DNA of 64,000 nucleotides from Rhizobium sp. 9140. GTDB lineage: Bacteria > Pseudomonadota > Alphaproteobacteria > Rhizobiales > Rhizobiaceae. Location of the stretch: assembly GCF_900067135.1 (NCBI RefSeq), contig NZ_FJUR01000005.1:124001-188000 (forward strand). The letters run 5' to 3'. Under the pieces are notes generated by a model. It had not been told where the DNA came from and searched no databases. It worked only from the letters and a program-made list of their open reading frames with translations. Shown here in pieces: positions 41,456 through 46,695 of this stretch; the first letter of the stretch is position 1, and every line of letters starts with the position of its first letter. The position numbers and the translations under genes are program-made.

Positions 41456-42106
41456 ATGTTAATCGGCTACGCGCGGATTTCGAAGAACGACGGCCAGGAG
41501 GCGGCAACCCAGATAGAGGCGCTCTGGGAAGCCGGTTGCGAACGTGTATTTGATGAAAAGGCATCAGGTGCTCGATGGGATCGGCCTGAGCTTCATCGGT
41601 TGCTTGACCAGCTGCGCGACGGAGACACCCTCGTCGTCTGGAAACTCGACCGACTCTCCCGTTCGCTGAAGGATCTTCTCCATATCCTGGACAAGGTGGA
41701 AGCAGCCGGCGCCAGCTTCCGGTCGTTGACCGAAGCCGTGGACACTTCGGGCCCGGCGGGTCGCATGATGATGAAGATGCTCGGGGCATTTGCCGAATTC
41801 GAGCGCGCCATGGTACGCGAAAGAACTCGCGCGGGATTGAATTCTGCTCGTGAACAAGGCCGCGTTGGAGGCCGACCGCCGAAATTCAATGATGAACAGC
41901 GCGCAGAAATCATCGACATGCTCGAGGCCGGCCGGAAACCGGCCGATGTGGCACGGCTGTTTCGTGTGCATCGAGCAACCATTGCGCGGCTGACGGCAGC
42001 GATGAAGTTTGAACAGGATGAAGATTCGGACGAGGCGCGTACGGTCGGGGTTTCCTTGCTGTCGCCCAAATCCAGCGCGGACAGGAGACCTCCCCATGTT
42101 AAATGA
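41456..42106 (+). CDS. Serine recombinase (resolvase/invertase family)
   Basis: 216 residues. MLIGYARISKNDGQE with Ser9 as likely nucleophile, DEKASGARWDRPELHRLLD, VWKLDRLSRSLKDLL, FAEFERAMVRERTRAGL, and a C-terminal helix-turn-helix (GRKPADVARLFRVHRATIARL). It may act as a plasmid multimer resolvase or be a leftover mobile-element gene. Directly preceded by the 14-bp palindrome. Overlaps the downstream methyltransferase gene by 11 bases, an unusual pairing. Confidence 0.9.
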   Translation: MLIGYARISKNDGQEAATQIEALWEAGCERVFDEKASGARWDRPELHRLLDQLRDGDTLVVWKLDRLSRSLKDLLHILDKVEAAGASFRSLTEAVDTSGPAGRMMMKMLGAFAEFERAMVRERTRAGLNSAREQGRVGGRPPKFNDEQRAEIIDMLEAGRKPADVARLFRVHRATIARLTAAMKFEQDEDSDEARTVGVSLLSPKSSADRRPPHVK

Positions 42107-42947
42107 GCGAGCCAGCATCGAAGAAATCAGAGGGTTTTATGCCCGCCTCATGGCGGCGGCCAGCAGATCGTCTGATCCGCGGCTTGAGAGAGCTTTCGAG
42201 GCTGTCCCTCGCGAAGCTTTTTTCCCTCCCGGCCCTTGGAAAGTCATGGTTAACCTCCGGTACTTTGAGACGCCGAGCGCTGATCCAGTCTACCTCTATC
42301 AAAATGCCCTCGTGGCGCTGGATGCACAAAAGGGGATCAATAACGGCGAACCTTCGCTTCATGCGGCATGGATAGGAGCGGTAGCGCCACAGCGCGGGGA
42401 GGCCGTCACGCATGTCGGCGCAGGAACCGGGTATTACACCGCGATCCTGTCAATGCTCGTCTTGCCCACAGGCAAGGTTACCGCATTCGAAATCGACGGG
42501 AACCTGGCCGGAGAGGCCACGCAGAACCTCGAACCGTTTGAAGGCGTAGATGTCATCACGGGTGATGCTACGAGGAAGCGGTTGCCGCTGTCGGACGTGA
42601 TCTACGTGAACGCCGGCGTGGCCGCACCGCCGACCGAGTGGTTAAGGGCGCTGAAGCCCGGCGGACGGATGATCTTTCCGTGGCGACCGAGCGAGGAGGT
42701 CGCGCTGACATTGCTGGTGCGGGCAGAAAACGGGGGCTTTAGCGTCACACCCCTGATGCCTGCCTGGTTTATTCCATGCGTGGGCGCGTCGAGGGAGGTC
42801 ACTGCTTCCATGTTGCCAGCCAGTTTTCCGGAAGCTCGGTCCATTCGCTCGCTGTGGAGAACGGCCGATCGCGCCCCTGACGAAAGCGCGATAGCCATCT
42901 ATCCCGACGTTTGGTTCTCCACCGAGCCTGCCAGTGCGATCCATTGA
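42096..42947 (+). CDS. SAM-dependent methyltransferase (isoaspartate O-methyltransferase-like)
   Basis: 283 residues. N-terminal ARLMAAASRSSDPRLERAFEAVPREAFFP and the SAM motif I AVTHVGAGTGYYTAILSML at about 104-122, then VTAFEIDGNLAGEA and ADVIYVN-like motif II/III (DVIYVNAGVAAPPTEWLRALKPGGRMIFPW). Similar to PCMT-type enzymes but with an extended C-terminus. AGGAG lies upstream of the ATG. Target unknown. Translationally coupled to the serine recombinase gene. Confidence 0.8.
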   Translation: MLNERASIEEIRGFYARLMAAASRSSDPRLERAFEAVPREAFFPPGPWKVMVNLRYFETPSADPVYLYQNALVALDAQKGINNGEPSLHAAWIGAVAPQRGEAVTHVGAGTGYYTAILSMLVLPTGKVTAFEIDGNLAGEATQNLEPFEGVDVITGDATRKRLPLSDVIYVNAGVAAPPTEWLRALKPGGRMIFPWRPSEEVALTLLVRAENGGFSVTPLMPAWFIPCVGASREVTASMLPASFPEARSIRSLWRTADRAPDESAIAIYPDVWFSTEPASAIH

Positions 42948-43614
42948 AGTTAACTTTGGCAATCTCCTGGAGCCAACTTGGGAAATGACCCTCGCCCGGT
43001 GGGTAATGCGCTGCGCAAAGTTCCGGAAGATATCCTCGCGGGTATTTTTCCGTCCCGAAATCGTCGCGGTCGCTATCATCTTGCGCTAATAGCACCGATA
43101 CCATTTCACATCCTTCCGTGAAACCGAGCCTTGCGGCCGATCCTCCATCATCTGGCAGCAATCGGCCCGGCCTCGTGTCGTTTCGCTTTCTTCGGCGAGT
43201 TCCTCGTAGGATGACACTAACCGGGATGGCTCCCCTCGTCTTCGCTGGTCTGATCCACGTTTTCCCGGAATGTCTGGTCGCAGCCTTCGCGATCTGTTGG
43301 CAAAGTTTACCACTCGCTGCCAGTGAGAGTTCATCCGTTGCAATTCTGTAGTGGCGTGGTAGAGCCGCAAGCGCTATAAGCCCTCTCGAGGTAGTACGCG
43401 CTATCTCGCGGGCTTAGTAACCCGAGCATGTCGGTTTGGCGTCCGCCGTTAGGACGTCGAATTCCTCGACCTATGGTCGGGGAGCCATGGACTCATGTCC
43501 AGGTTCCTCGGAACTAAAGGTCCATGGGCCGGCACATGCTCGGTTACTAACTCCCCGATCGCCAGGGGTCAGGAACAATGCGGGGGCGTACCGCGCATTC
43601 GTTTGGGAGGAGCC
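42948..43614. other. Intergenic region with a dense hairpin block
   Basis: No gene I can support between the methyltransferase and traM. A minus-strand frame at 43086-43370 exists but has no recognisable features. The second half holds the nested inverted repeats listed at 43414-43550. Confidence 0.5.
43414..43550. repeat. Nested inverted repeats, possible structured RNA or cruciform upstream of traM
   Basis: A long outer stem pairs 43414-43434 (TTAGTAACCCGAGCATGTCGG) with 43529-43550 (ends CATGCTCGGTTACTAA) with two small bulges. Inside are CGTCC/GGACG (43440-43444 with 43452-43456), GTCGA/TCGAC (43456-43460 with 43466-43470) competing with CGACC/GGTCG (43467-43471 with 43475-43479), CCATGGAC/GTCCATGG (43485-43492 with 43520-43527), and GTTCC/GGAAC (43503-43507 with 43510-43514). 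Confidence 0.6.
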
Positions 43615-43914
43615 ATGTCCAAAGAGGAAAATGGCACGATTGAAGACGTAGACCTTCGTCCACTCGTCGGGTTGCTGGCAGGTGTACCTGAACGGATAAT
43701 AGAGGGACTAACCGTCGAAGCGATCAAAAAGCACCGTGATCTGGTGGAAAAGGCTGAGATACTGTTTCAGAACTTACCGACTAACGCGCAAGGCGGCATC
43801 GACGGGAATGACGCGGCTCAGATTGACTATTTCGCAGCGGCCATCGAAATGCACGCCCAGATGTCCGCTCTGACGACACTCTTGAAGATCCTCGGTCGGA
43901 CACCGAAAGTCTGA
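43615..43914 (+). CDS. traM: TraM, anti-activator of TraR
   Basis: 99 residues, matching TraM in length and pattern: DVDLRPLVGLLAGVPERIIEGL, TVEAIKKHRDLVEKAEILF and the C-terminal helix FAAAIEMHAQMSALTTLLKILG. TraM binds TraR and blocks DNA binding, setting the quorum threshold for conjugation. GGGAGGAG lies upstream. Convergent with traR, their ends 10 bases apart. Confidence 0.9.
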   Translation: MSKEENGTIEDVDLRPLVGLLAGVPERIIEGLTVEAIKKHRDLVEKAEILFQNLPTNAQGGIDGNDAAQIDYFAAAIEMHAQMSALTTLLKILGRTPKV

Positions 43915-43924
43915 CCGCACCTGA

Positions 43925-44629
43925 TCAAATCAACCCACGGCGTATCGCCAAGGCAACCAGTTGCGTGTTATTGCACAGATCGTAACGTCGCCGCGCGTCC
44001 GCCAGGGCTATCCGAACGGTGTTGTACTTGACGTTCTCGATATCTGCCGCGTCTTCAACCGTTTTACCCTGTTCAAGCCACCGGACGTAAGTGGCCTCTT
44101 TCGGGCTAAGGTAGACAGTTTCCTCGATCGAGGGCTGCACTTTAAGCTGGTCAATACGAGCGTGTAATTGCGCTACCGCTGAAGCGGCCACTATCGCATC
44201 AATGTCGTTCTCAGTAGACAGGTTGGCCTTGGAAGACGCAAAAGTGAGCATTGAAATCGCACCGTTGGGTGTCGCCACCGGGATCGAGACGCCGGACCGG
44301 ATATCATATTCGCTCGCATCTGCGAAAAATCGCCGCTCCTCTTTGCTCAGCGAGGCCTTTTCTGATTCTCCGGACCACGCGAACGCGCGACGCCATTTCT
44401 GGGCCTGGCGCACGACCGGGTCCAGGTGCCTGAAATTTTCCTGGTAATATCGCTCTTGCCATTCCGCCTGATAGTTTGAAACTGCAAAAGAATGACCGGG
44501 TCGGAGGTTGACGAACGCATATCCGGAGAAGTCGAACCGATCGGCAAGCTGCGAGAGTGCCGCTTCGAGGGTACTTTGATCTCGAGCGATCGCAGTAATG
44601 TCCAATAGTCTTTCGAGCCAATGGGCCAT
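43925..44629 (-). CDS. traR: TraR, LuxR-family quorum-sensing activator of conjugation
   Basis: 234 residues, exactly the usual TraR length. Autoinducer-binding domain (HWLERLLDITAIARDQ, YAFVNLRPGHSFAVSNYQAEW, NFRHLDPVVRQAQKWRRAFAW) with the Trp, Tyr and Asp of the AHL pocket, then a LuxR helix-turn-helix (LSPKEATYVRWLEQGKTVEDAADIENVKYNTVRIALADARRRYDL). Expected to bind the tra-box-like sites at 31623 and 50713. No traI synthase lies in this window, so its signal must come from elsewhere. Confidence 0.92.
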   Translation of the reverse strand: MAHWLERLLDITAIARDQSTLEAALSQLADRFDFSGYAFVNLRPGHSFAVSNYQAEWQERYYQENFRHLDPVVRQAQKWRRAFAWSGESEKASLSKEERRFFADASEYDIRSGVSIPVATPNGAISMLTFASSKANLSTENDIDAIVAASAVAQLHARIDQLKVQPSIEETVYLSPKEATYVRWLEQGKTVEDAADIENVKYNTVRIALADARRRYDLCNNTQLVALAIRRGLI

Positions 44630-45525: not shown

Positions 45526-46695
45526 TCACGTGTTGAAAGACATCACGAGCGGCTTGCCGAACAAGCGAGCCCAAGCCTCAGCGCTGGCGCGTTGGATTGA
45601 GACGATACTTGTCCCCTTGGTCCACCATCCGTTTCCGACCGCGACTATGAGGTCGGGATCGTGCAACATCGACTGGAGAACGGGCCAAACGATCAGCTGC
45701 TCGTAGCAAATGAGCGGTGCAACCCGATATCCGAGCACCTCGGCCACCGGATTTGCGAAGAAATGTGCCCGGGCGCCGCTGCCTTTGCCGATCAGCGGAA
45801 GCCACGGCTGCCACATCGAGCCTGGGACCGGCATTCGCTCACGATAGAGAATTTCGCTGCTCTCGGCCGAGATCCGTACGAGGATATTGTCGTATCCTTC
45901 GGCGTTGATCATCGCTGCGCCTGCGACGACTGTAAGGCCGGTTCCCGATAGCTGCTGGCGCCACAAACGATCCACCGAGGATGTCCATAAGCCTAGTGCG
46001 CTCTCGGGCAACACCACGATGGAACGGCCGGAAACGTGTTGATCGAAGACTGTCGCGGCGAGATCACGATGGCGAGAAAGACTTCCATCCCGGCCGAGAC
46101 TGCTACCGAGCTGCAGGTCGACTGCTTGCCAGCTTTTGGGCCAATCTTCCCGGTCTGTCGCCAATGCAGCCGGTCCAAGCCATAGGCCTGCGAAGGCGAA
46201 GGCCGCAGCTGGCCAGCATCGTGTCGACATAATCACGAGGCCGGCCGCCATTGACACAAGCCCGCCCCAGCCCCACCCGGGGAACAGGATGCCTGCGGCC
46301 GTGATCGGATGGGCCCATCCGACGATGCCGAAAGGGGGCACAGCCATCAGCAATATGGCCGCGAAGTACCGTAGGGCCCTCCGCCACCCAGCGTGTGGCG
46401 TCCACACGACTGTATGGACAAACACGAACCCGGTGGAAGCGGCAATCCAAAGGATCAAACCCGGCCAGAGATCCGACTGGTAGAATGCGGCGACGCCCTG
46501 TGGCAGTCCGCGCGATGCGGCGAGGAAGTAGGCTGTGGATACAGCTGCCGCGCAATGCCGTCTTGGCGCCAATGACCAGATTAGCGGAAAGGCCGCTGAC
46601 AAAGGAAGTGCCGAGGCCTGGCCGCTCCAGGCGATGAAACCGACAGCTCCTGACGCAACGATGAGGGCGAGAGCGAGCTGGCATTCATGGCGCAA
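45526..46695 (-). CDS. traB: TraB, conjugal transfer protein with nitrilase/Lnt-like fold
   Basis: 389 residues. N-terminal half with several membrane segments (WPGLILWIAASTGFVFVHTVVW, ALRYFAAILLMAVPPFGIVGW). C-terminal half has a carbon-nitrogen-hydrolase fold: VVLPESALGLW (Glu region), ILYRERMPVPGSMWQPWLP, and APLICYEQLIVWP with the Cys. In Ti plasmids TraB raises transfer efficiency. Overlaps traF by 11 bases. Confidence 0.9.
   Translation of the reverse strand: MRHECQLALALIVASGAVGFIAWSGQASALPLSAAFPLIWSLAPRRHCAAAVSTAYFLAASRGLPQGVAAFYQSDLWPGLILWIAASTGFVFVHTVVWTPHAGWRRALRYFAAILLMAVPPFGIVGWAHPITAAGILFPGWGWGGLVSMAAGLVIMSTRCWPAAAFAFAGLWLGPAALATDREDWPKSWQAVDLQLGSSLGRDGSLSRHRDLAATVFDQHVSGRSIVVLPESALGLWTSSVDRLWRQQLSGTGLTVVAGAAMINAEGYDNILVRISAESSEILYRERMPVPGSMWQPWLPLIGKGSGARAHFFANPVAEVLGYRVAPLICYEQLIVWPVLQSMLHDPDLIVAVGNGWWTKGTSIVSIQRASAEAWARLFGKPLVMSFNT

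What the first reader, a model, noticed from the sequence alone, without database searches (positions are those of the whole stretch)
43414..43550. Unexplained block of nested hairpins upstream of traM
A 21-22 base outer stem encloses at least four further inverted repeats in 137 bases, two of them mutually exclusive (GTCGA/TCGAC against CGACC/GGTCG). Such alternative pairing is typical of regulatory RNAs. It sits 65 bases before the TraR antagonist gene and does not look like an IS end or terminator.
Basis: seen in the sequence. Interest (0 to 1): 0.75.

Follow-up and report, generated by a model that had tools for sequence, protein, structure and literature searches.

The report
Self-matching RNA leader before traM
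The folded stretch before traM is one copy of a widespread, apparently undescribed family of roughly 210-base leader RNAs whose first half matches its own second half like a private lock and key, often placed before genes thought to restrain plasmid transfer.

Summary
Covariation in 49 diverse homologues strongly supports the structure. Of 149 close-type copies (redundant), 39 precede TraM genes, 39 a single-domain DUF2285 protein like QseM, 11 a TraM-like group and 13 XRE regulators; among 62 non-redundant copies it is 14, 10, 0 and 5, with 26 unplaced.

The 5' half is an antisense image of the 3' half. Segments a and b are hypervariable yet match their own a' and b'; strand c' can pair with c or with c''. 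In 75 of 75 pairs of copies sharing a genome, b prefers its own b'. In part of a deeper branch c'' overlaps an intrinsic terminator.

No Rfam 15 family matches the window copy. The core is a remote relative of sRNA-Xcc1 (RF02221). Best reading: a self-specific antisense/target leader, C4-like in logic, controlling the downstream gene. The RNA family is secure; the mechanism is inferred, and no transcript was seen.

The parts
43375..43380 (+). -10-like box TATAAG, 13 nt before the first base of the element
   Evidence: Best TATAAT-like hexamer starts at -13 or -12 in 47 of 62 representatives; match quality itself is only slightly above shuffles, and a sigma-70 consensus scan found no promoter here.
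43388..43407 (+). P1, 5' hairpin with loop around ACGCG
   Evidence: Helix 1 of A2: 6 of 7 pairs with changes on both sides, 77.2% of cells paired (partly misaligned in A2).
43409..43424 (+). P2 hairpin; its loop 43413-43420 is segment a
   Evidence: 98.5% of cells paired; a matches its own a' (z -14.5).
43425..43431 (+). segment b, hypervariable antisense arm
   Evidence: b matches its own b' (z -29.2); divergence 0.345 among close relatives.
43439..43457 (+). P4 hairpin
   Evidence: 6 of 6 pairs with changes on both sides.
43458..43474 (+). segment c, upstream partner of c' (P5)
   Evidence: z -5.0 cognate against non-cognate; not kept in all classes.
43475..43484 (+). strand c' (GGTCGGGGAG)
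   Evidence: Helix 4 of A2 with c'', 97.1% of cells paired.
43485..43527 (+). P6 with near-invariant internal loop ATGTCCAGG..CTAAAGG
   Evidence: 5 of 8 pairs with changes on both sides; near-invariant columns.
43529..43543 (+). P8 hairpin; loop 43532-43540 is b'
   Evidence: 96.6% of cells paired.
43544..43550 (+). segment a'
   Evidence: Column pair 43416/43548 is the strongest covariation in the scan (z 31.5).
43551..43560 (+). strand c'' (CTCCCCGATC), competitor of c for c'
43579..43595 (+). P7, conserved 3' hairpin GCGGGGGCGTACCGC
   Evidence: 94.7% of cells paired; flagged terminator-like by a consensus scan.
43605..43611 (+). likely ribosome-binding sequence GGGAGGA
   Evidence: Read from the sequence.
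43615..43914 (+). traM, TraR antiactivator
   Evidence: Prok-TraM E 1.5e-24.
43925..44629 (-). traR, convergent with traM
   Evidence: Annotated as traR in the 100% identical plasmid region L015; coordinates carried over.

Best explanation
The block is the 5' leader of traM and a member of a new family of about 210-nt structured leader RNAs that works as a self-specific antisense/target switch. The first half (P1, P2 with a in its loop, b, P4, c) is an antisense image of the second half (c', P6, P8 with b' in its loop, a', c''). When the antisense half pairs with the target half (a:a', b:b', c:c'), c'' is freed and the downstream gene is shut off; in part of the deep branch a free c'' completes an intrinsic terminator, in the plasmid type the read-out is unknown. 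When c' pairs with c'' (H_A, with P8 closed) the gene is expressed. Because a and b are hypervariable but self-matching, and b differs between copies sharing a genome, the antisense half most likely also acts in trans on its own kind only, as phage C4 RNA does. Shown from sequence: the RNA family, its helices, the self-matching, the within-genome difference, the gene association. Inferred: transcription, direction of effect, action in trans, and an effect on TraM level and hence on the transfer threshold.
For: Covariation: 30 of 48 pairs with both sides changed, 237 cells against 69.0 +- 7.5 shuffled (0 of 500), slid controls 39-61. Self-matching in 62 representatives: a -4.74 against -1.95 kcal/mol, b -8.62 against -2.48, 0 of 1000 permutations each; mismatched controls z -0.6, -0.2, +2.1; repeated in 26 deep copies. 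b and b' are the most divergent parts among 504 close pairs (0.345, 0.391; linker 0.280; P2 stem, c' and c'' 0.006-0.014). 75 of 75 within-genome pairs prefer cognate b, 63 of 75 cognate a. 9 of 26 deep copies have a terminator-like hairpin beginning inside c''. Fixed -10 position in 47 of 62. ORF of at least 55 aa 3-70 nt downstream in 156 of 175 copies, against 63 of 175 reading away from the 5' end. The remote relative sRNA-Xcc1 shows the same complementarity with its upstream flank (z -5.9, 0 of 2000). TraM protein falls without Hfq (PMC4201532, passages), compatible with RNA-level control.
Against: No transcript is shown; a sigma-70 scan finds no promoter at the window copy. P5 is only modestly supported (z -5.0) and lost to A-C mismatches in some copies. 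Pairing of c'' with the ribosome region is weak (z -2.8; longest run 5.81 against 5.71 non-cognate), and forcing H_A in the window did not make GGGAGGA more open (mean unpaired probability about 0.40 against 0.53 unforced). Only 6 of 62 plasmid-type copies have a terminator-like hairpin, so the read-out there is unknown. In cis the nested model favours the antisense-paired state by 8.0 kcal/mol (pseudoknots not counted), so something must open it. Within-genome pairs are few at matched similarity (19) and not independent. P1:P7 complementarity does not covary (z +1.8). sRNA-Xcc1 is a mapped 88-nt RNA (PMC2996969, passages), not a proven target.
Confidence: 0.5

Rival explanations
1. A cis-acting riboswitch: the pseudoknotted fold with the near-invariant P6 internal loop binds a small molecule, which chooses between P5 and H_A; a:a' and b:b' are only structural.
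For: Compact pseudoknotted fold, near-invariant loop nucleotides, competing helices, leader position, terminator overlapping c'' in some deep copies.
Against: Downstream genes are too varied for one metabolite; b:b' diverges faster than the free linker; copies in one genome always differ in b.
Confidence: 0.22
2. A leader bound by a host or plasmid protein (for example Hfq or another RNA chaperone) that sets translation or stability, without antisense specificity.
For: Near-invariant P6 loop and P7; TraM protein falls without Hfq (PMC4201532, passages).
Against: Does not explain the self-matching hypervariable arms. The Hfq effect may be indirect.
Confidence: 0.18
3. A single-stranded DNA structure (as in leading-region promoters or initiation sites of conjugative plasmids), not RNA.
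For: Common on conjugative plasmids; strong hairpins on one strand.
Against: Fixed -10 box before P1, same-strand ORF directly behind, also on records titled as chromosomes such as L100 and L131 and before non-transfer genes.
Confidence: 0.05
4. A palindromic mobile repeat (MITE or IS remnant).
For: Long inverted repeat.
Against: Two copies in the own genome, both before TraM-group ORFs; compensatory changes.
Confidence: 0.01

Closest known systems
sRNA-Xcc1 (Rfam RF02221), 88-nt RNA of Xanthomonas
   Same: Core order c', P6, P8 with b', a', c''; weak reciprocal model hits; upstream flank complementary to the tail; mobile-element setting.
   Different: The window copy scores nothing against RF02221. 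The plasmid type adds P1 and P7 and keeps both halves in one leader. Downstream of RF02221 loci, 8 of 19 tested ORFs have phage antirepressor-type domains, the rest no Pfam match, not TraM.
C4 antisense RNA of phages P1/P7 (RF01695; also c4-2, c4-a1b1)
   Same: Antisense arms a and b facing two target segments near the start of the regulated gene; specificity in the arms (description from passages of PMC5320573).
   Different: No C4 or c4-2 hit at the element, nor directly upstream of RF02221 loci in the 18 genomes tested. C4 is a processed ~77-nt RNA and its targets are antirepressors.
FinP/traJ of F-like plasmids (recalled, no call)
   Same: Plasmid-specific antisense control of the leader of a conjugation regulator.
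   Different: FinP comes from the opposite strand and controls an activator; here the antisense-like half is on the same strand and the gene is an antiactivator.

Membership tests
sRNA-Xcc1 (RF02221) | score above Rfam's gathering cut-off (53 bits) | tested here: not met
   Window: no hit. Other members reach 28.7-36.2 bits.
sRNA-Xcc1 (RF02221) | homologous core in the same place and order | tested here: met
   RF02221 on model positions of the core for L189 (E 4.8e-5); R1 hits 9 of 20 RF02221 loci at the RF02221 place at E up to 1, three of them below 0.001. Remote, through intermediates.
sRNA-Xcc1 (RF02221) | accumulates as a discrete small RNA | not testable with these tools
   Known for Xcc1 (PMC2996969, passages); no transcript data here.
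C4 antisense RNA (RF01695, c4-2 RF02944) | match to the C4 or c4-2 model | tested here: not met
   not next to RF02221 loci.
C4 antisense RNA (RF01695, c4-2 RF02944) | two arms complementary to two target segments | tested here: met
   a:a' and b:b'.
C4 antisense RNA (RF01695, c4-2 RF02944) | separate antisense RNA cut out by RNase P | not testable with these tools
   No RNA data.
riboswitch | binds a ligand and changes fold | not testable with these tools
   Competing helices exist; ligand unknown.
IS/MITE | dispersed copies without fixed gene context | tested here: not met
   Two copies in the genome; 156 of 175 copies before a same-strand ORF against 63 in the control.

The most novel reading that the evidence does not exclude
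Conjugative plasmids and integrative elements across Alphaproteobacteria carry a self/non-self RNA code: each antiactivator leader yields an RNA half that silences only leaders with the same a/b code, so a resident element recognises an incoming copy of its own kind and resets its transfer threshold. The same RNA architecture stands before antirepressor-type genes in the sRNA-Xcc1 branch, which would make this one ancient immunity device shared by phages and conjugative elements.
Probability: 0.35. Interest if true: 0.92.

Novelty: new variant of a known kind. Interest (0 to 1): 0.78.

Why it matters
TraM and QseM-type proteins hold back activators of conjugation. Finding the same structured RNA before both suggests a shared, overlooked RNA layer in the control of plasmid and ICE transfer, Ti plasmids included. 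It also offers a role for sRNA-Xcc1: it may be the target half of an antisense/target pair. The a/b code gives direct, testable predictions about which elements recognise each other.

Tried and rejected
Considered and rejected: an IS/MITE; a known Rfam family; direct membership of C4; a P1:P7 helix as a fourth antisense pair (no covariation, z +1.8), not claimed; c'' as a cover of the ribosome site, only weak support. Phage records hold no DNA match to the block; the viral collection gave none to the first pattern and three to the second.

Limits and dropped rows. Acidobacteria genomes were not searched with the model (one search failed and was not repeated). L124 was left out of A2 (49 of 50 representatives). 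Searches used 62 of 147 plasmid-type rows (near-identical ones removed; L014 and L201 left out); the 149 include those two. One search used 94 rows of A4 without deep rows, L014 and L201; one pair there that I had labelled as one genome (L019, L030) comes from two different plasmids and was dropped. In one search I first chose 10 of 19 ORFs that partly looked phage-like (8 hits, one below Pfam's cut-off); the other 9 were tested later (none), hence 8 of 19. Four of the 8 start 94-224 nt downstream and another, shorter ORF may lie between. Permutation tests do not model relatedness; the mismatched controls were run for that reason. One search used mononucleotide shuffles. Gene labels such as pilin-like in the deep branch are by eye.

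Full report
What was checked. The block at 43414-43550 folds far better than shuffles on the plus strand (z -8.0) and less so on the minus strand (z -5.1); the whole element 43388-43596 has z -5.8. No Rfam 15 family reaches its curated score there; in the small stretch, at E up to 10, only a chance-level c4-a1b1 hit appears (9.9 bits, E 7.7).

Homologues. The own genome has a second copy, 85% identical, on another contig, before an ORF that falls in the TraM group. Among plasmid records, 214 of 72,556 match the block with its flanks: mostly Agrobacterium and Rhizobium; Bosea, Afipia, Methylobacterium, Paracoccus, Shinella and others too. Neighbours differ: traM in close relatives and pTiC58, an HTH regulator in p42d and pAMI8, small unnamed proteins elsewhere (15 records viewed).

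Extent and structure. Conservation runs from 43388 to 43596. RNAalifold and a separate covariation scan agree on most helices; P1 was added by hand. Counting 48 pairs over 49 sequences under 80% identity gave 92.7% paired cells, 30 pairs and 237 cells with changes on both sides (shuffles 69.0 +- 7.5, 0 of 500; slid controls 39-61). The strongest covarying column pair (z 31.5) links the P2 loop to the strand before CTCCCC, a pairing that cannot be drawn together with P2, P8 and H_A without a pseudoknot.

Family size. Covariance model R1 finds 42 of 289 genomes of the class at E up to 0.01 and 26 of 299 of the phylum at E up to 0.001; both counts include the own genome and some core-only matches. 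Besides close relatives there is a deep branch; the 26 deep copies analysed score 45-96 bits. They lie before varied genes, by Pfam or by eye XRE regulators, glycosyltransferases, DUF4268 proteins, outer-membrane and prepilin-like proteins. Of 20 loci sampled, none matched Rfam at curated scores except nearby tRNAs.

Link to sRNA-Xcc1. In permissive scans RF02221 falls on the core (model positions about 87-173) in 3 of 7 and 3 of 18 loci given (28.7-36.2 bits, cut-off 53), and with E 4.8e-5 for L189 alone. R1 in turn matches 9 of 20 strong RF02221 loci at the RF02221 place at E up to 1, three of them below 0.001, best 4.6e-5. Upstream of these 20 loci lies sequence complementary to the target tail (cognate -27.95 against -24.11 kcal/mol, z -5.9, 0 of 2000; cognate the best partner in 6 of 20). 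By eye it includes a hairpin whose loop pairs with a' and, in many, a terminator. Of 19 downstream ORFs tested, 8 have Bro-N, KilA-N, P22_AR_N or Phage_pRha domains (one below Pfam's cut-off), 11 have no Pfam match. So sRNA-Xcc1 looks like the target half of an antisense/target pair. It is on record as a mapped 88-nt RNA (PMC2996969, passages) that lies upstream of symE in Xanthomonas integrons (PMC12444791, passages).

Self-matching. In 62 representatives a matches its own a' (-4.74 against -1.95 kcal/mol, z -14.5) and b its own b' (-8.62 against -2.48, z -29.2), 0 of 1000 permutations each; mismatched controls give z -0.6, -0.2 and +2.1. In 26 deep copies z is -9.8 and -14.9. Among 504 close pairs b and b' diverge most (0.345, 0.391), more than the linker (0.280), while the P2 stem, c' and c'' hardly change (0.006-0.014); a and a' are at 0.143 and 0.123 (loop columns are aligned only roughly). 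In 24 genomes with two or more copies held, cognate b:b' beats cross-pairing by at least 0.5 kcal/mol in 75 of 75 pairs and a:a' in 63 of 75. At matched similarity 14 of 14 (0.80-0.90) and 5 of 5 (0.90-0.97) within-genome pairs are b-incompatible, against 92% of 1754 and 60% of 247 between genomes; for a the within-genome share is no higher than between (57% against 62%, 40% against 36%). Six of the 19 pairs come from one genome. This is what a recognition code would give, though the matched numbers are small.

Switch. H_A (c':c'') is strongly supported (97.1% paired; z -8.0), P5 (c:c') less (z -5.0). In the window the nested minimum over 43388-43660 has a:a', b:b' and P5 (-125.8 kcal/mol); forcing H_A costs 8.0 kcal/mol without counting pseudoknots, and does not open GGGAGGA (mean unpaired probability about 0.40 against 0.53). 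In the deep branch 10 of 26 copies have a terminator-like hairpin after c'', 9 of them beginning inside c'', so H_A and terminator compete (shuffled rate 0.021). In the plasmid type 6 of 62 do, and pairing of c'' with the ribosome region is barely above control.

Promoter and genes. The best -10-like hexamer starts 13 or 12 nt before P1 in 47 of 62 copies; its position, not its quality, stands out, and the sigma-70 scan is negative at the window copy. An ORF of at least 55 aa starts 3-70 nt after 156 of 175 copies, against 63 of 175 reading away from the other end. In 149 plasmid-type rows profile clustering gives 39 TraM, 32 DUF2285, 13 XRE, 11 of a TraM-like group, 15 in small groups, 39 unplaced; seven of the unplaced have a DUF2285-like protein 115-133 nt downstream. 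Three DUF2285 members were Pfam-tested (PF10074) and 5 of 99 representatives matched it. In the TraM-like group three of four members tested show weak Prok-TraM matches below its cut-off. Among the 62 representatives: 14 TraM, 10 DUF2285, 5 XRE, 7 in small groups, 26 unplaced. That the DUF2285 proteins act like QseM (an antiactivator related to RovC; PMC10359603, passages) is inferred from domain and size.

What is in print. Searches of the open library listed no paper that, by title or abstract, describes this leader; I read passages of thirteen papers, not whole texts, and no supplements. PMC3738593 (passages) counts one 5' UTR element on the Ti plasmid of C58 without naming it in the passages seen. 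PMC4201532 (passages) reports less TraM protein without Hfq.

Judgement. That this is a conserved leader RNA family is close to certain. That it works by self-specific antisense/target pairing is the best reading; action in trans and its biological use are inferences that simple experiments can settle.

Noticed in passing
46157-46248 (+): Match to Rfam RF02506 Atu_Ti1 (74.1 bits, cut-off 55), antisense to the ORF at 45526-46695 (-), annotated as traB in the identical plasmid.
   Followed up: no
41456-42947 (+): A resolvase-like recombinase and a protein-L-isoaspartate O-methyltransferase lie between trbI and the leader here and in pAtCFBP6625a, but not in L016 or L017: probable insertion.
   Followed up: no
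L018:5982-6192 and L076:7610-7820: On pTiS4-type Ti plasmids the element is kept but no ORF of 55 aa or more starts within 70 nt; an IS6 transposase gene lies just upstream: perhaps an orphan copy.
   Followed up: no
genomes G102, G115, G121, G173: Six or seven copies per genome in the class search, before varied genes; several are nearly identical except for b.
   Followed up: partly
L152-L154 (viral contigs): Three contigs filed as viral carry the leader before an ORF that looks by eye like a PAS-type sensor, as in Acidobacteria copies.
   Followed up: no
L195:2889-2953 (-): Type II hammerhead ribozyme (66.4 bits, cut-off 37) about 1.4 kb from a core-only copy.
   Followed up: no
PMC12189769, Table 4 (passage): In Xylella De Donno, C4, isrK and sRNA-Xcc1 matches lie within 400 nt on one strand, suggesting these families share phage immunity regions.
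   Followed up: no
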